The translations under genes were made by a program, and so were the position numbers. 20,000 nucleotides of DNA from a virus. Every line of letters starts with the position of its first letter. Positions within the stretch are counted from its first letter, which is position 1. Location of the stretch: positions 1-20,000 of IMG/VR virus record IMGVR_UViG_3300025890_000215. One strand, 5' to 3'. Below, in pieces: positions 466-18,448 of this stretch. The notes under the pieces were generated by a model, which made no database searches, was not told the DNA's origin, and worked only from the letters and a program-made list of their open reading frames with translations.

Positions 466-1695
466 ATGGCAAGACGTAACGGTGGCTTTATTGGTACTGA
501 TGGATTAGATGCACCTGATCCACCTACAGGGGTTAGTGCTTCTAAGGGTGACACACAGGTAAGTGTAGAATTTACTGCACCTACTGATACAGGCACTTCT
601 GCTATCACAGGTTTTGTTGCACAGGTTAGTACAGACGGTACAGCCTACAGCGCAGGTTCTGGTACAGGTACATCATCACCTATAACTGTTAGTAGTTTAA
701 CTAACGGCACAGCTTACACAGCTAAAGTGTGGGCTATTAATGCTTATGGTACATCTAGCCCTAGTGATGCGAGTGGGAGTGTTACGCCTACTATTGCTGT
801 TGCTGCTTTTATGGGAGGTATAACCACAGGAGACAGCTTAACTAATACGATTGATTATATTAACTTTGCTAGTACGGGCAATGCCAGCGATTTTGGTGAT
901 TTAATTTCAGTGATGACACAGGGAAGTAAGGGCAGTGTTTCTTCTTCTACGCGAGGTGTAGTCGGTGGTGGCGCAACTGGCAGCGATGCAGAATACAATA
1001 TAATTCAATATATAACTTTTGCTTCCACAGGTAACGCAACTGACTTTGGAGATTTGACTCAAATAAGAGAGTCTTTAGGGGGATGTAGTTCTTCTACAAG
1101 AGGGGTGTTTGCTGGCGGCTTGAAGGGAACGCCAGACAACACGAACTACAACATCATTGACTATGTGACCATAGCCTCTACGGGAAATGCAACGGACTTC
1201 GGTGATTTGCTGGATACGACACGCAGTTTAGGCGGGGCAGGGTCTAGCACCAGAGGCGTATTTGCAGGGGGGGAAGCTCCCACTTCAGCAGATATTAATG
1301 TAATTCAGTATATCACCATAGCTTCCACAGGCAACGCAACGGACTTTGGCGATATGTCTGGCACAGGCCGACACGCTGCTTGCTGTAGTAGTTCAACAAG
1401 GATGTTAATAGGTGCAATTGACGGTGCTATTTCGGATAATACAATTGAGTATATCACGATAGCGTCAACGGGGAACTCAACGGATTTTGGTGATCTTACA
1501 ATAAGCAAAACAACCCGTGCGGCTGCGTCTAGCTCCACTCTTGGAGTTTGGGCAGGGGGACAAAGTGCATTCGATAACACCATTGATTATGTTACAATTG
1601 CGACTACAGGTAATGCGCTAGATTGGGGTAATCTTACAAGTCCAAGAGGCAGCGTTTCTGGCGGGGCTTCATCTGTTCACGGAGGACTTTCATAA
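466..1695 (+). CDS. Fibronectin III plus six-repeat kelch-like fibre protein (paralogue A)
   Basis: A 409 aa protein with two parts. Residues about 15-107 look like a fibronectin type III domain: PDPPTGVSAS start, VSVEFTAPTDTG core, then the LTNGTAYTAKVWAINAYGTS strand pair. From about residue 114 come six repeats of 45-51 residues with the consensus IxYITIASTGNATDFGDL, a variable stretch, SSSTRGVFAGG. The last repeat ends in HGG. Six such units fit a six-bladed beta-propeller. The likely role is a tail fibre or other surface adhesin, since FN3 and propeller domains are common phage surface modules. No clear Shine-Dalgarno precedes the ATG, which lies two bases after the previous stop, so translation is probably coupled. 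Its repeat half is richer in G+C than its two paralogues downstream. Confidence 0.75.
   Translation: MARRNGGFIGTDGLDAPDPPTGVSASKGDTQVSVEFTAPTDTGTSAITGFVAQVSTDGTAYSAGSGTGTSSPITVSSLTNGTAYTAKVWAINAYGTSSPSDASGSVTPTIAVAAFMGGITTGDSLTNTIDYINFASTGNASDFGDLISVMTQGSKGSVSSSTRGVVGGGATGSDAEYNIIQYITFASTGNATDFGDLTQIRESLGGCSSSTRGVFAGGLKGTPDNTNYNIIDYVTIASTGNATDFGDLLDTTRSLGGAGSSTRGVFAGGEAPTSADINVIQYITIASTGNATDFGDMSGTGRHAACCSSSTRMLIGAIDGAISDNTIEYITIASTGNSTDFGDLTISKTTRAAASSSTLGVWAGGQSAFDNTIDYVTIATTGNALDWGNLTSPRGSVSGGASSVHGGLS
805..1692 (+). repeat. Six kelch-like repeats, paralogue A
   Basis: Six in-frame units, each built as x-GG-x(n)-(I/V)xY(I/V)TIASTGN-x-(T/S)DFGDL-x(8-12)-SSSTRG. The DNA copies are diverged from each other, so this is an old protein repeat rather than a fresh tandem duplication. 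Unit 5 has lost the usual GG (it reads LIGAIDG), and the last unit ends in SSVHGG. Confidence 0.85.
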
Positions 1696-2681
1696 TGCCC
1701 AATTATCAAGGTGTATGGAGCCTCTCAACACAGTATCAGTATGCAGCAGATTGGCCTTTAAATCCTGAAGATCTTCAATCTGCATCTGCACAATCATCAG
1801 CAAGGGCAGTATTTGCTGGTGGTGAGATAGGTGGTTCTGCAGTAAACACTATGGAGTTTGTAACTATAGCTACAACAGGTAATGTTACAGACTTTGGTGA
1901 TATGACAGTAGCAAGGACACGTCTTGCTGGTTGCTCAAGTTATACTAGAGGCGTTTTTGGTGGTGGCTCTAGTGCAACAAATGTAATGGATTATATAACA
2001 ATAGCTACAGCAGGAAATGCTACTGACTTTGGTGATCTTTCTGCTGCTAAATCTCAGTTGACGGCAGTTTCTAGTAATATTAGAGGTGTGTTTGCTGGTG
2101 GCTATGCAGGTGGAAACATAGATGTTATGGAATATATAACTATTGCTTCTGTTGGTAATGTTACAGATTTTGGTAATTTAAGTGCTATATCAAGAAGGGG
2201 AACTGGTCACTCTAGCACTACTAGAGGGGTAATAGCTCTTGGTACACCAACGGCAAGTGACAGTTATAGTGATACTATAGAATATATTACTATTGCTAGT
2301 ACAGGTAATACTACTGACTTTGGTAATCTTTCTGCTGCTAAATATTTAATGGGTGGTCATTCTAGTTCTACAAGGGGAATATTTGGTGGTGGTAAGAGTT
2401 CAGGCACTGATTATATTAATGTGATAGAATATATTACTATTGCTAGTACTGGTGATGTTACAGACTTTGGTGATTTACTTGCAGGAAACAGAAATTTTAT
2501 GTCTACTAGTAGTCATACTAGAGGTTTATTTGCTGGAGGAAATGCGGGTGGGGCTACAGTTGATGTAATACAATATATTACTATTGCTTCTACAGGCAAT
2601 GCTACTGACTTTGGTGATCTTTCTGCTACTAACTTTGAAGGTCCAGCTGCTGTATCTTCAGCACACGGGGGATTATTTTAA
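1695..2681 (+). CDS. Six-repeat kelch-like fibre protein (paralogue B)
   Basis: A 328 aa protein. Its start overlaps the previous stop by one base (TAATG), and the GGAGG at 1681-1685, nine bases upstream, lies inside the preceding gene. Residues 1-38 form a leader with the motif GVWSLSTQYQYAADWP, shared in altered form with paralogue C. From residue 39 there are six repeats of the same VFAGG, ITIASTGNATDFGDLS type, ending SSAHGGLF. There is no FN3 domain. It was probably made with paralogues A and C as a set of alternative or co-assembled tail tip proteins with propeller folds. The codon choice is AT-rich, unlike paralogue A. The repeat family is clear from the sequence; the receptor-binding role is inference. 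Confidence 0.75.
   Translation: MPNYQGVWSLSTQYQYAADWPLNPEDLQSASAQSSARAVFAGGEIGGSAVNTMEFVTIATTGNVTDFGDMTVARTRLAGCSSYTRGVFGGGSSATNVMDYITIATAGNATDFGDLSAAKSQLTAVSSNIRGVFAGGYAGGNIDVMEYITIASVGNVTDFGNLSAISRRGTGHSSTTRGVIALGTPTASDSYSDTIEYITIASTGNTTDFGNLSAAKYLMGGHSSSTRGIFGGGKSSGTDYINVIEYITIASTGDVTDFGDLLAGNRNFMSTSSHTRGLFAGGNAGGATVDVIQYITIASTGNATDFGDLSATNFEGPAAVSSAHGGLF
1809..2678 (+). repeat. Six kelch-like repeats, paralogue B
   Basis: Six units starting at VFAGGEIGG and ending at SSAHGGLF. The core TGNxTDFGDL is kept in nearly every unit, with Asn/Asp variants at the GN and GD positions. The segments between DFGDL and the SS-TRG turn are variable in length and sequence, as expected for exposed loops. 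Confidence 0.85.
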
Positions 2682-3694
2682 TGTCGTACAAACAAATGAC
2701 AGGCAACATAATCTCCGCAACAAAAGTAGAACCTGATGGTAAACTTGTAAGTAGTGCAGCCTCTGGTGTGTGGAACTTACAAGATCAGTATGATTATGTT
2801 AGAGGTGATAACTGGCCTAATGCGGCTAATTTAGCTGCTACAGGTATTTTTCATGCAGGGTATGCTTCAGCAACTAATACACTAGATCAATTATTAATTG
2901 CTTCTGCAGGTAACACTACTGATTGGGGAGACTTAACTCTATCACGTTATAATGATGCAGGTGCTTCTAACAGTATTAGAGGTTTATTTGCAGGTGGAAC
3001 AAATTCAGGAAATTCTGAAGTAAATACTGTTGATTTTATTGTTTTTGCTACTGCAGGAAATGCTTCAGACTTTGGTGATTTAGGTGGTACAACCTTTGGA
3101 AATGCAGGTGTATCAAACTCAACAAGAGCAGTTTTTACAGGTAGAATAGGTGGAACTTCTGATAATAGAATGGAATATTTTACCATAGCTTCAGCAGGAA
3201 ATGCTACTGACTTTGGTGATCAATCAGTTACTAGGTATCAATTAGGGGGATGTCAATCAAGCACTAGGGGAGTGTTTGGGGGAGGTAATAGTACAAGTGA
3301 TGTTATAGACTACATAACTACAGCATCAACAGGTAATGCTACAGACTTTGGTAACTTAACTGTAGGTAGAGGATCTCAAGGCGGTGCTAGTAATACTACC
3401 AGAGGAATGTTTTTTGGTGGTGAAAGTGCTGGAGATAATAATATTGTTGATTATATTACCATAGCATCAACTGGAAATGCTACGGACTTTGGTAATTTAA
3501 GTAACTCAAATTCTTTACATTGTATGTCTGTTGCCAGTTCTACTAGAGCAGTTTCAAGTGTTGGCAATAATAATAATACTCTTGATTTTTTTACAATAGC
3601 ATCAACGGGAGATGCTACAGACTTTGGTGATTTAAGTAGTGGTAGCGGTGCAAATGGAGCAGTTTCCAACTCCCACGGTGGTATAGCGGCATAA
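2681..3694 (+). CDS. Six-repeat kelch-like fibre protein (paralogue C)
   Basis: A 337 aa protein, again starting in a TAATG overlap, with GGGGGA (2667-2672) eight bases upstream inside the previous gene. The 55-residue leader contains GVWNLQDQYDYVRGDNWPNA, matching the GVW-L-QY-Y-WP motif of paralogue B. I remember this motif from N-terminal parts of other marine phage fibre proteins. Six repeats follow from residue 56 (IFHAGY) and end at SNSHGGIAA. Repeat 6 is the most degenerate at its GG position (VSSVGN). It is the last gene of the cassette: no gene overlaps its end, and a 62-base gap with a promoter-like sequence follows. The likely role is tail fibre or adhesin. Confidence 0.75.
   Translation: MSYKQMTGNIISATKVEPDGKLVSSAASGVWNLQDQYDYVRGDNWPNAANLAATGIFHAGYASATNTLDQLLIASAGNTTDWGDLTLSRYNDAGASNSIRGLFAGGTNSGNSEVNTVDFIVFATAGNASDFGDLGGTTFGNAGVSNSTRAVFTGRIGGTSDNRMEYFTIASAGNATDFGDQSVTRYQLGGCQSSTRGVFGGGNSTSDVIDYITTASTGNATDFGNLTVGRGSQGGASNTTRGMFFGGESAGDNNIVDYITIASTGNATDFGNLSNSNSLHCMSVASSTRAVSSVGNNNNTLDFFTIASTGDATDFGDLSSGSGANGAVSNSHGGIAA
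2846..3691 (+). repeat. Six kelch-like repeats, paralogue C
   Basis: Six units with the core AGN/TGNATDFGDL and the SNSTRG/SSTRG turn. As in paralogues A and B, the array stops at a serine-rich HGG end. The fixed number of six in all three proteins argues for a closed fold rather than an open stalk of free length. Confidence 0.85.
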
Positions 3695-15068: not shown

Positions 15069-15093
15069 GGGGCAATTAAGCCCCTCTTTTTTT
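15067..15093 (+). terminator. Rho-independent terminator ending the virion gene unit
   Basis: GAGGGGC (15067-15073), a six-base loop AATTAA, and GCCCCTC (15080-15086) make a perfect 7 bp GC-rich stem followed by seven T (15087-15093). The last two bases of the TGA stop of the giant gene open the stem. The TAA stop of the opposing mazG gene (15094-15092 on the - strand) begins in the T run. On the - strand the stem is not followed by a T run, so it should work mainly for rightward transcription. Confidence 0.9.
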
Positions 15094-15421
15094 ATCTAGT
15101 GTCACCACTTCCACCAATTGTACCTGCATCTTTCCTAGCCATGAGTTTCTTTTCATTCTGTCCTGCAATCATACCCAAGGTAAGGTTAAGATCAGTAGCT
15201 AATGCAGCACAATACCAGAGTACATCACCTATCTCACTGGCTATGTCCTCTCTCCATGTATCAGGTCTGTTTTCTGGGCCATCACGTATAAGTTTCTTAA
15301 CTTTGTTGGCTACCTCTCCTGCCTCACCAGCTAACCCTAACGCAGGATATAGTATCTTGTGTTGTTCAGGATAGATTGCAGTACGTGATGCACTCCTTTG
15401 ATATGCGTTAAAGTCAGACAT
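15092..15421 (-). CDS. mazG: MazG-like nucleotide pyrophosphohydrolase
   Basis: A 109 aa protein from ATG at 15421, the usual size of single-domain phage MazG. I chose this start because AAAGGAG (15437-15431) lies nine bases upstream. An upstream in-frame ATG at 15472 would add 17 residues but has its AAGGAG only one base away. The all-alpha NTP pyrophosphohydrolase metal-binding motif is complete: E33xxE36 in GLAGEAGEV and E63xxD66 in SEIGDVLWY, followed by NEKKLMAR (N-x-x-KL-x-x-R). The family hydrolyses NTPs/dNTPs to monophosphates; a role in lowering host ppGpp has been proposed for phage MazG. It overlaps the RMF-like gene by eight bases and is the last gene of the - unit. Confidence 0.88.
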   Translation of the reverse strand: MSDFNAYQRSASRTAIYPEQHKILYPALGLAGEAGEVANKVKKLIRDGPENRPDTWREDIASEIGDVLWYCAALATDLNLTLGMIAGQNEKKLMARKDAGTIGGSGDTR

Positions 15422-15677
15422 GCTGTACTTCTCCTTTAGGAACTGCTCTGCCTCTGCCTGTAGTTCGTTCATACTCCTTCACCCTTTTAAGTTGTTCAAA
15501 GTAGGCTTTGTTAAACCCACGTTCCCATTCACGATGTTGCATCGTATCCTTATCGAATGGGCTTGTTAGGCTACTACCATTTTTAAAAACGGAATAGCCC
15601 ATTTGGTATTGCACTCTTAGTGGTGCATCATGTTTACCTAAACCACGAGAGGCTCTGCTTTTATTATTGTTCTTCAT
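15414..15677 (-). CDS. Ribosome modulation factor (RMF)-like small protein
   Basis: An 87 aa basic protein with AAGGAG seven bases before ATG. Residues 24-58 follow the pattern of the RMF family: Q25-M-G27-Y28, then G34, P40-F41, W51-x-x-G54-F55 and A58. This is the GY-x5-G-x5-P(Y/F)-x(n)-W-x-x-G(F/W)-x-x-A layout of RMF and RMF-like proteins. RMF proper binds the 30S/50S ribosome and promotes inactive 100S dimers in slow-growing cells. The protein is longer than E. coli RMF (55 aa), with a basic N-terminus and a Lys/Arg-rich C-terminal tail. It overlaps mazG by eight bases. The motif match is seen by eye only; a ribosome-binding role in infection is inference. Confidence 0.5.
   Translation of the reverse strand: MKNNNKSRASRGLGKHDAPLRVQYQMGYSVFKNGSSLTSPFDKDTMQHREWERGFNKAYFEQLKRVKEYERTTGRGRAVPKGEVQHV
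15431..15437 (-). promoter_or_regulatory. Ribosome binding site fixing the mazG start
   Basis: AAAGGAG on the - strand, nine bases before ATG at 15421 and inside the coding sequence of the upstream RMF-like gene. It supports the shorter MazG and tight coupling of the two genes. Confidence 0.7.
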
Positions 15678-15688
15678 AAGTATTCTCC

Positions 15689-16168
15689 TTATGCTATTTT
15701 AAGTTTATGTTCTGCGTGTTCTTGTAAAAAAGATAAAGGTAGTATTGTCATTAGATCACCTCTGGTAGGACGTGTGTGTAATCCAAATTCCCCTCTGTAA
15801 TAATCCTTACACTTCTCATTTATTTTGTCAATAACTCTTTCTGGTTTAACTAAGAAAAAGTATTCATCAGTTTTAATTGCAATGTACCTGTCAATACCAT
15901 TAGGTACACCCCAACCTTTTGCTGATTCATTATTAGGTGGACGCTTAACTGTTTTTAGTTCCCACCAAATAGTATTATCTACAGGACCATTACGATACTT
16001 ACGTTTAGCTGCTTTGACATCCACTCTACCAAACTCTTTGTCTAGTACATCCCAATGTTCGTTAACGTTTTCATTCCAGTTAGCTTCACGTACAACGTGA
16101 CTACCTCGTAGTGCAATAAACTCTTGCTCTGCTTCTGTTCCTTCTCTATAAGAATTTGTTTTTTGCAT
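15689..16168 (-). CDS. Putative PD-(D/E)XK-type nuclease
   Basis: A 159 aa protein with CGGAG eight bases before ATG. It shows the order of conserved residues expected of the PD-(D/E)XK fold: an N-terminal acidic helix GTEAEQEF (E14/E16), D40 in NEHWDVLD, then GRVDVKAAKR with D50-x-K52, and WWELKTVKR one strand later. This resembles small phage or archaeal Holliday-junction-resolvase-like or restriction-like enzymes that bind Mg2+ and cut DNA. The acid before the D-x-K is a poor match to the classic PD, so certainty is moderate. In context it would be a third nuclease of this fold in one operon, alongside the T7 endonuclease I homologue and the Cas4-like exonuclease. Confidence 0.5.
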   Translation of the reverse strand: MQKTNSYREGTEAEQEFIALRGSHVVREANWNENVNEHWDVLDKEFGRVDVKAAKRKYRNGPVDNTIWWELKTVKRPPNNESAKGWGVPNGIDRYIAIKTDEYFFLVKPERVIDKINEKCKDYYRGEFGLHTRPTRGDLMTILPLSFLQEHAEHKLKIA

Positions 16169-16385: not shown

Positions 16386-18284
16386 TTATACTAAGTCTAC
16401 TATTTCGCATACGTCACCAGAGCAAGCCATAGTTTGCATTGCTACGGTGTTATCGTCTTTCTCGTACTCAGACAGCCCAGCCCAATCAATACGTTTAGGC
16501 ATAGACTTTAGTAACACATTGTAGGCATCTTTGTCTATCTCTTGGTATGGTGCCTGTTGATAGGTATGTTCAGAGTGTGGTAAAAATGATACACCTGACA
16601 TCTCATCAAAGTATTTGTATACAAAGGCACCTACTTCCATCCACTCTTCCTCACGAACAGAGATAGTAACGCTAGGTTTATGCTCACAAAAATGTCGTTG
16701 ATATTTAAGCCACATCTCTAGTTGCTCAATGGCAGTCATATCATTACGTGTAACCGATTTTGCAGGTGACTTAATAGGAAAACTAAACACTGTAGTAGTG
16801 TCACCTTTCATAACGCATGGCTCACTAGGTATACCCTGATCCATCATAAACTTTGTTAACGGATCTTTATTATCACCACGCACAGTGCGGATATAATAGG
16901 GGCTATGGCGAGCATGTATGCCAGAGGCACTATCCACCAGTTGCGAAACTGTTCCCGATGGTTTAATGCACGTAATTGCAGCAGCAACAGGTATACCAAG
17001 ACGATCAGCCCATTCAGCATTAGTAGATACAGCGATCCCACGTAGATGTTCAAGAGTACTTTCCAATTCTTTGTTGCGTAATGTCATCAAAGGGTTGTCC
17101 ATTATCCCTGTGAGTGACACACCAAGCAGTCGTTCTTCTTCTGTATTTGTAGACCACACCTTTCGCAGATATGGGAATTTTGTGTACGTTGATTGGATAG
17201 TTCCCAGAATTGTTGCCAAACGGATTTTTCGTTCAAGATCTTCCATAGTGTCTGTAGCACGTACAACAACTTCCGTAAGATTACAGAACTGATATGGACG
17301 CAAGATGATCTCACTACATGGATTAGTTCCAAACTCGTGATCTGGATCTCTACGCCCAAACTTTTTAGCTTGGTTTTTAGCTGCTTGACGATTGTATACA
17401 CCACGTTCTCCTGATTTACTTTCAACTAATGCTTGCCACTCACGCATGTATGTTTCCATGTCGGGCTTCTCTGTATAACTAACACTGTTATTTGCTAATG
17501 CACGATGTGCAGCAGTCTCCCACCACTGACCTGACTTAGCATGACGCATACGGTCATCAGATAAATTAGATAAACTAATCATAGCTGATCGACGCACACC
17601 ACCCACTACAACAATCTGACCAATGAAACACATAAGATCGTGACACTCAATGCTAGATAGCTTACGTCCTTGTGCATTCTTGAATGTAGTGATAGCAAAA
17701 TTAAATAGTTCTACTAATGGTGCAGGGCCACTAGCTCTACCACCAAATATTTTTAGTCTTGCCCCAGCAGGACGTACCTTAGAGACATCCCACTTAGGGA
17801 TCTCACCAGCCCATAGGAGTGCCAACACTTGACGGAAAGCTTTAGCCCAACCTTCCTTACTATCCTTGACAACGACTGTTGTATCACTGTCGAACAACTT
17901 AGGAACTTCAGGGAGCTTAGATACGAACTGACGTTCGACACTAAAGCCGACACCAGTACCACACAAGAGAATGAACATAGCCTCATCAAAGGACTTAGGA
18001 TCATCTACGGGTAAGTAACTACAGTTATAACCTGCAGTGTTGTCACGCTCTAATGCCTTACCTGCAGTCATCATAGCCCTCATACTAGGCGTAACCTCTT
18101 GACCTAAGATAGCGTCACGAATTTCGTTAGCAATCTTGTTATCGACTAAATTGATAACAACATTATCTATGTAACGTCCTACTGTCTCGCTCCAATTTTC
18201 TCTTCGTCCTTCATTTTCAAGCCATCGTGCATACCGTGAAGTATGAATGAAGGATTGATAGTCTGTTGGTAAATAATTATCCAT
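16386..18284 (-). CDS. nrdJ: Class II (B12-dependent) ribonucleotide reductase, monomeric type
   Basis: A 632 aa enzyme that reduces ribonucleotides to deoxyribonucleotides using adenosylcobalamin, needing neither oxygen nor a second subunit. All key residues are visible: redox cysteines C88 (AGYNCSYLP) and C334 (YQFCNLT), thiyl-radical C323 and E325 in NPCSEI, and a C-terminal thiol pair C621-x4-C626 (MACSGDVCE). The 11-residue spacing C323 to C334 equals C408/C419 of the Lactobacillus leichmannii triphosphate reductase (739 aa). IKPSGTVSQLVD (about 440-451) is the substrate/phosphate loop. I chose ATG 18284 because CGGAG ends eight bases upstream; ATG 18290 overlaps the previous TGA but leaves only two bases. 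There is no intein. It would supply dNTPs for phage replication in a host that makes or imports B12. Confidence 0.95.
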   Translation of the reverse strand: MDNYLPTDYQSFIHTSRYARWLENEGRRENWSETVGRYIDNVVINLVDNKIANEIRDAILGQEVTPSMRAMMTAGKALERDNTAGYNCSYLPVDDPKSFDEAMFILLCGTGVGFSVERQFVSKLPEVPKLFDSDTTVVVKDSKEGWAKAFRQVLALLWAGEIPKWDVSKVRPAGARLKIFGGRASGPAPLVELFNFAITTFKNAQGRKLSSIECHDLMCFIGQIVVVGGVRRSAMISLSNLSDDRMRHAKSGQWWETAAHRALANNSVSYTEKPDMETYMREWQALVESKSGERGVYNRQAAKNQAKKFGRRDPDHEFGTNPCSEIILRPYQFCNLTEVVVRATDTMEDLERKIRLATILGTIQSTYTKFPYLRKVWSTNTEEERLLGVSLTGIMDNPLMTLRNKELESTLEHLRGIAVSTNAEWADRLGIPVAAAITCIKPSGTVSQLVDSASGIHARHSPYYIRTVRGDNKDPLTKFMMDQGIPSEPCVMKGDTTTVFSFPIKSPAKSVTRNDMTAIEQLEMWLKYQRHFCEHKPSVTISVREEEWMEVGAFVYKYFDEMSGVSFLPHSEHTYQQAPYQEIDKDAYNVLLKSMPKRIDWAGLSEYEKDDNTVAMQTMACSGDVCEIVDLV

Positions 18285-18289
18285 GTGCA

Positions 18290-18448
18290 TCACTCCGTTA
18301 TTAATTTTATTGATTTAATTTCCATACCATCTACATCGTAGATAAATTCCTGTAGTGCATCCTTCACTTCTTCTTCGACAAAGCCATCCACAGGAATAGG
18401 ATATTCGTCTTCGTCTATTTTTAATGTAAGAAATACTTTAACTATCAC
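18290..18448 (-). CDS. 52 aa acidic small protein filling the nrdJ upstream gap
   Basis: Reading the - strand from GTG 18448 gives 52 codons to TGA (18292-18290), a gene shorter than usual cut-offs. The product begins MIVKVFLTLKIDEDEYPIPV, continues as an acidic helix EEEVKDALQEFIYDV and ends in EIKSIKLITE. This is a beta-alpha-beta pattern of a folded mini-protein. The start overlaps the end of the DUF3310 gene by 11 bases and is preceded by GAGG at normal spacing. The stop adjoins the nrdJ start. It fills the only gap in the - unit exactly, which supports it as real. Function unknown. Confidence 0.6.
   Translation of the reverse strand: MIVKVFLTLKIDEDEYPIPVDGFVEEEVKDALQEFIYDVDGMEIKSIKLITE
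18293..18297 (-). promoter_or_regulatory. Ribosome binding site fixing the nrdJ start
   Basis: CGGAG on the - strand ends eight bases before ATG 18284. It lies across the end of the 52 aa gene upstream. It favours 18284 over ATG 18290 and GTG 18293, which are too close to it. Confidence 0.6.

What the first reader, a model, noticed from the sequence alone, without database searches (positions are those of the whole stretch)
15092..15677. RMF-like gene overlapping mazG: a possible phage module acting on host growth state
Phage MazG has been proposed to lower ppGpp, and RMF is a ppGpp-linked factor that parks ribosomes as inactive dimers. Here an RMF-like gene overlaps mazG by eight bases, with mazG's ribosome site inside it, so the two are made together. 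A phage RMF mimic could block, protect or redirect host ribosomes while MazG shifts the alarmone signal. I do not know of this pairing being described.
Basis: partly seen in the sequence, partly recalled or inferred. Interest (0 to 1): 0.68.

Follow-up and report, generated by a model that had tools for sequence, protein, structure and literature searches.

The report
RMF-fold phage gene overlapping mazG
A small gene overlapping mazG in abundant ocean phages encodes a protein with the fold of the bacterial ribosome-parking factor RMF, but it lacks most of RMF's ribosome-contact residues, so the gene pair is real and conserved while the proposed ribosome-dimerising role is unlikely.

Summary
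The 87-aa ORF at 15414-15677 (-) is a real gene: hundreds of IMG/VR relatives, dN/dS about 0.1. It is a distant relative of ribosome modulation factor (RMF). The window protein itself has no Pfam RMF match, but divergent homologues do (best E 2.6e-5, under Pfam's cut-off), and two AlphaFold models match solved RMF first. Core residues of RMF are kept; those that contact 16S rRNA or are needed for 100S dimerisation (R3, K5, R11, C29, W44, R45) are replaced. Alphaproteobacteria, the host class, appear to lack canonical rmf and carry long HPF. The RMF-mimic reading is therefore weak, and so is its ppGpp premise: the one assayed cyanophage MazG does not act on ppGpp.

The pairing is not unique: adjacent in 14 of 20 HMO-2011-type contigs sampled by DNA polymerase. 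It is separable: some genomes have the genes apart or mazG alone. The overlap is 8 nt from one mazG start, 59 nt from an upstream start conserved in all 81 loci.

Best reading: an RMF-fold accessory protein, perhaps ribosome-associated but not a dimeriser, co-translated with a nucleotide-cleaning MazG. I found no paper describing the pair.

The parts
15414..15677 (-). RMF-fold ORF, 87 aa, pI about 10.2; predicted helices 20-33 and 46-74
15092..15472 (-). mazG, 126 aa from the upstream ATG (15472) or 109 aa from the downstream ATG (15421)
   Evidence: PF03819 29 bits; phrog_229 2.3e-34; EAGE...EIGD motif; starts
15414..15472 (-). 59-nt overlap of the two reading frames if mazG starts at 15472
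   Evidence: ATG conserved 81/81 loci although the RMF-frame residue varies Y/N/H/D, always NAT; dS 0 in the overlap among three close relatives
15419..15421 (-). second mazG start codon, 8-nt overlap
   Evidence: conserved as ATG in 66/66 loci where it lies inside the ORF
15431..15436 (-). AAGGAG before the second mazG start; it encodes part of the conserved C-terminal KGEVQHV tail of the RMF-like protein
   Evidence: AAGGAG in 60 of 71 loci; tail absent in homologues with a shorter ORF
15685..15690 (-). Shine-Dalgarno of the RMF-like gene
   Evidence: aaggag, 7 nt before ATG
15689..16168 (-). upstream gene of the same run, 159 aa, unknown
   Evidence: ORF; no Pfam or PDB match
16386..18293 (-). 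ribonucleotide reductase, first recognisable gene upstream in the run
   Evidence: phrog_367 9.8e-186

Best explanation
The gene encodes a small basic protein with the two-helix RMF fold, conserved in HMO-2011-type marine phages in a slot between the RNR gene and the convergent structural genes. It is translated together with mazG from overlapping reading frames; the overlap links expression, but the two products act separately. Shown here: fold and distant homology to RMF, purifying selection, conserved overlap, separability. Inferred: the protein uses the RMF scaffold to associate with ribosomal or other RNA during infection and tune host translation, through a binding face different from RMF's, and it does not dimerise ribosomes into 100S particles. 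MazG most likely hydrolyses (d)NTPs in the nucleotide-recycling module rather than lowering ppGpp.
For: Fold: Foldseek's top three PDB hits for the window model are all RMF (2jrm, 9iot_y, 6h4n_v), VIA Z 5.1-5.8 against 2.5 for the next; an independent model of divergent homologue L359 (pLDDT 89.8) also ranks RMF first, Z 7.0-7.7 against 4.0. Sequence: 12 of 19 family members match PF04957, best 2.6e-5, 24.6 bits; profile score above all 300 shuffles. G16, G23, P30, W40, G43 of RMF conserved. Basic: pI 10.2, median of relatives 10.1. Not a dimeriser: R3, K5 (helix 28 contacts) and R45 (anti-SD contact) replaced. Overlap. Slot after RNR kept even where mazG is elsewhere. MazG substrate: PMC6850273.
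Against: No direct evidence of ribosome or RNA binding. Two residues needed for RMF binding (C29, W44) are changed, W44 conservatively. Basic charge is not universal: the CRP-212 homologue has pI 6.5. The genomic neighbourhood is DNA and nucleotide metabolism, not translation. BatR shows that RMF homologues can act outside hibernation. Z scores under 8 for a helical hairpin are modest by the tool's own note.
Confidence: 0.42

Rival explanations
1. The RMF-fold scaffold has been repurposed as a protein-binding accessory of the nucleotide-metabolism module or of a host target, with no ribosome role.
For: Lies in the RNR/endonuclease I/DUF3310/MazG run. Invariant family-specific stretches KYDAPL and DTMQHREW that RMF lacks. 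rRNA-contact residues lost. BatR, a closer RMF homologue, works outside hibernation. One homologue is near neutral.
Against: No partner identified. The slot is kept when mazG lies elsewhere, which argues against MazG as the obligate partner. Strongly basic in most members.
Confidence: 0.38
2. One reading: a functional RMF mimic that parks or protects host ribosomes as dimers while MazG lowers ppGpp.
For: RMF fold and linked translation with mazG.
Against: Residues R3, K5, R11, C29, W44, R45, each needed for full dimerisation in E. coli, are replaced. Alphaproteobacteria lack canonical RMF and use long HPF. Cyanophage MazG is inactive on ppGpp. The genes separate.
Confidence: 0.07
3. The RMF resemblance is a chance likeness of a short helical hairpin with G and W residues; the protein is unrelated.
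For: The window protein itself has no RMF match in Pfam or NCBIfam at E 10. In the PDB sequence search the mTOR FRB domain scores slightly above RMF. Foldseek E-values are near 1.
Against: Divergent homologues match PF04957 at 2.6e-5; RMF is top in two models; 0 of 300 shuffles reach the score; PF04957 hits in whole phage genomes fall only on this ORF.
Confidence: 0.08

Closest known systems
Escherichia coli RMF (PF04957; PDB 6h4n, 4v8g, 9iot)
   Same: Two-helix hairpin of similar size; G16, G23, P30, W40, G43 positions conserved; basic.
   Different: Below the Pfam cut-off; R3, K5, R11, C29, W44, R45 replaced; longer N-terminus and second helix; in phages of alphaproteobacteria.
RMF-superfamily proteins already annotated in phages (Agrobacterium phage Milano; BFVD entries of Delftia phage IME-DE1 and Caulobacter phage CcrBL9)
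   Same: Small phage proteins of RMF fold, function untested as far as I found.
   Different: No mazG in the Milano stretch inspected; different phage groups.
P. aeruginosa PA3049/BatR
   Same: RMF homologue with changed function (PMC13411936).
   Different: Cellular, much closer to E. coli RMF in sequence.
Rmf/CrpP family (NF041886, NF041856)
   Same: Weak matches of divergent homologues, same motif.
   Different: All below the curated cut-offs; CrpP activity not tested.
Hypothetical genes of HMO-2011 (phage1322_20), CRP-1 (gp29), CRP-345 (gp38)
   Same: Orthologues directly upstream of mazG with overlap.
   Different: Annotated only as hypothetical proteins.

Membership tests
RMF (PF04957) | Profile match over Pfam's curated cut-off (27.9 bits) | tested here: not met
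   Window protein: no match. Best relative 24.6 bits.
RMF (PF04957) | Two-helix RMF fold | tested here: met
   Two AlphaFold models, RMF first in PDB searches; modest Z of 5-8.
RMF (PF04957) | Structural core residues G16, G23, P30, W40, G43 | tested here: met
   G16, W40, G43 in 103/103; G23 in 98/103; P30 in 83/103.
RMF (PF04957) | Essential residues R3, K5, R11, C29, W44, R45 | tested here: not met
   Replaced in nearly all members (residues from PMC8126665).
RMF (PF04957) | Ribosome binding and 100S formation with HPF | not testable with these tools
   Needs sucrose-gradient assays.
RMF (PF04957) | Induction by ppGpp / stationary phase | not testable with these tools
   No expression data.
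Rmf/CrpP family (NF041886) | Match over NCBIfam cut-off (28 bits) | tested here: not met
   Window protein no match; relatives at most 17.3 bits.
MazG (PF03819) | Profile match over cut-off | tested here: met
   29 bits, cut-off 22.
MazG (PF03819) | Acidic metal-binding motif ExxE...ExxD | tested here: met
   EAGE...EIGD.
   A cyanophage MazG is inactive on ppGpp (PMC6850273).

The most novel reading that the evidence does not exclude
A phage family of RMF-fold proteins that binds the ribosomes of alphaproteobacterial hosts, which have no RMF, at a new site and reprograms translation during infection, with expression tied to nucleotide recycling through the mazG overlap.
Probability: 0.2. Interest if true: 0.75.

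Novelty: new variant of a known kind. Interest (0 to 1): 0.4.

Why it matters
HMO-2011-type phages are described as dominant and broadly distributed in the ocean (PMC9038755). A conserved RMF-fold gene in their nucleotide-metabolism run is a concrete, testable candidate for phage control of host translation, or a clear case of the RMF scaffold used for something else. It has no CDS of its own in the CRP-3, CRP-212 and CRP-235 records and is named hypothetical in HMO-2011, CRP-1 and CRP-345.

Tried and rejected
Single-sequence Pfam, NCBIfam and PHROG scans of the window protein found nothing useful. The P63C and mTOR-FRB hits are weak, cover only part, or are not repeated by the wider family profile, so they were taken as chance. 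E. coli RMF as a query found no relatives in IMG/VR or the phage collection, so the link runs only through profiles and structure. The wider profile A4 did not hit RMF chains in the PDB sequence set, although its members hit the Pfam model. The conserved C-terminal tail KGEVQHV was considered as a functional motif and rejected: it is the coding of mazG's Shine-Dalgarno and start, and shorter orthologues lack it. A pairing outside HMO-2011-type phages was looked for next to RMF-like genes of Milano, fHe-Yen8-01, BcepSaruman and Ep020; no mazG is annotated in the stretches seen for the first three, and no mazG-profile match was found in the Ep020 stretch.

Full report
What is there. The window is a 20-kb virus record whose best relatives are HMO-2011-type phages: Roseobacter phages CRP-1, CRP-2, CRP-207, CRP-345 and HMO-2011. 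On the minus strand run endonuclease I, DUF3310, ribonucleotide reductase, two unknown genes, the 87-aa ORF and mazG. The ORF is under purifying selection and has at least 588 relatives in IMG/VR; orthologues in HMO-2011, CRP-1 and CRP-345 also sit directly upstream of and overlap mazG.

Is it RMF-like. The window protein alone gives no RMF match. Family members do: CRP-3 0.0056, CRP-212 0.013, CRP-1 0.032, and in a wider alignment 12 of 19 members match PF04957, best 2.6e-5 and 24.6 bits, under the cut-off of 27.9. Searching 12 related phage genomes with PF04957 gave one hit in each of five, always this ORF. Profile-profile comparison scored 25.6, above all 300 column-shuffled controls (maximum 24.0). 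AlphaFold models of the window protein (pLDDT 77, core near 90) and of divergent homologue L359 (pLDDT 89.8) both rank solved RMF first, with Z 5.1-5.8 and 7.0-7.7, clear of the next rows at 2.5 and 4.0. These Z values are modest for helical hairpins, so the homology rests on sequence and structure together. Predicted viral structures similar to it include phage proteins already named ribosome modulation factor.

Does it work like RMF. Yoshida et al. (PMC8126665) showed that the fully conserved RMF residues they tested are needed for normal 100S formation, that G16, C29, W40 and W44 are needed for binding, and that R3/K5 contact helix 28 and R45 the anti-SD. Across 103 sequences (the window protein and its relatives) G16, W40 and G43 are invariant and G23 and P30 mostly kept, while R3, K5, R11, C29, W44 and R45 are replaced, W44 conservatively. 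So the scaffold is kept and the known contact set is not. The alignment in the N-terminal part is by residue offset from the core, so the R3 and K5 assignments are the least certain. In 190 alphaproteobacterial genomes PF04957 passes its cut-off once, in a 141-aa ORF, whereas the long-HPF C-terminal domain occurs in 126; the RMF search scores a limited number of candidates per genome, so absence is not proven.

The mazG side. MazG is intact by profile and motif. The only phage MazG with biochemistry that I found in the held library prefers dGTP/dCTP and does not act on ppGpp; the HMO-2011 survey paper cites the same result and calls mazG sporadic in this group. The ATG at 15472 is conserved in 81 of 81 loci while the overlapping RMF-frame residue varies among Y, N, H and D, always as NAT, against 58% NAT elsewhere in the same ORFs. 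mazG genes with no RMF-like neighbour have the same longer N-terminus. The ATG at 15421 is also conserved (66 of 66) and mostly carries AAGGAG (60 of 71). Either or both may be used.

How tight is the pairing. Among loci found mostly by the RMF-like protein itself, mazG is directly downstream in 181 of 204, a biased set with overlapping contigs. In 12 isolate or assembled genomes the RMF-like gene is in 7 and mazG (PF03819) in 9; they are adjacent in 3. In 20 contigs chosen by DNA polymerase with at least 9 kb downstream: both adjacent 14, both apart 2, mazG only 2, RMF-like only 1, neither 1. In the two mazG-only contigs another gene fills the slot. So the pair is common in one branch but separable. 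These samples are not corrected for phylogeny.

Mechanism. I put a ribosome- or RNA-associated, non-dimerising role slightly ahead (0.42) of a repurposed protein-binding role (0.38); nothing here tests binding directly. BatR is a precedent for the second. No paper found in the held library describes RMF-like and mazG together in phages; that library lacks most subscription papers.

Noticed in passing
window 466-3694 (+): Three adjacent ORFs (409, 328, 337 aa) built of similar repeats of the type TIASTGNATDFGDL...GVFAGG; the first starts with an fn3 domain (4.4e-8). Probably tail-fibre-like.
   Followed up: partly
window 15689-16168 (-): 159-aa protein upstream of the RMF-like gene with VDVKAAKR...WWELKT, reminiscent by eye of PD-(D/E)XK nucleases; no Pfam or PDB match.
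   Followed up: partly
L290 5438-5990 and L295 5411-5978, counted from the end of the polymerase gene: A 177-aa protein that looks like a GIY-YIG/T5orf172 nuclease by eye occupies the slot upstream of mazG in place of the RMF-like gene.
   Followed up: no
window 15421 and 15472 (-): Two conserved in-frame mazG starts, the second with a strong ribosome site: possible two MazG forms.
   Followed up: partly
L084 4977-5180, L086 2971-3159, L087 2974-3165: RMF-like ORFs of CRP-212, CRP-3 and CRP-235 have no CDS of their own in the deposited annotation.
   Followed up: yes
L212 (alphaproteobacterial genome G036): An RMF-like domain near the end of a larger protein; a similar stretch occurs in Aeromonas phages.
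   Followed up: no
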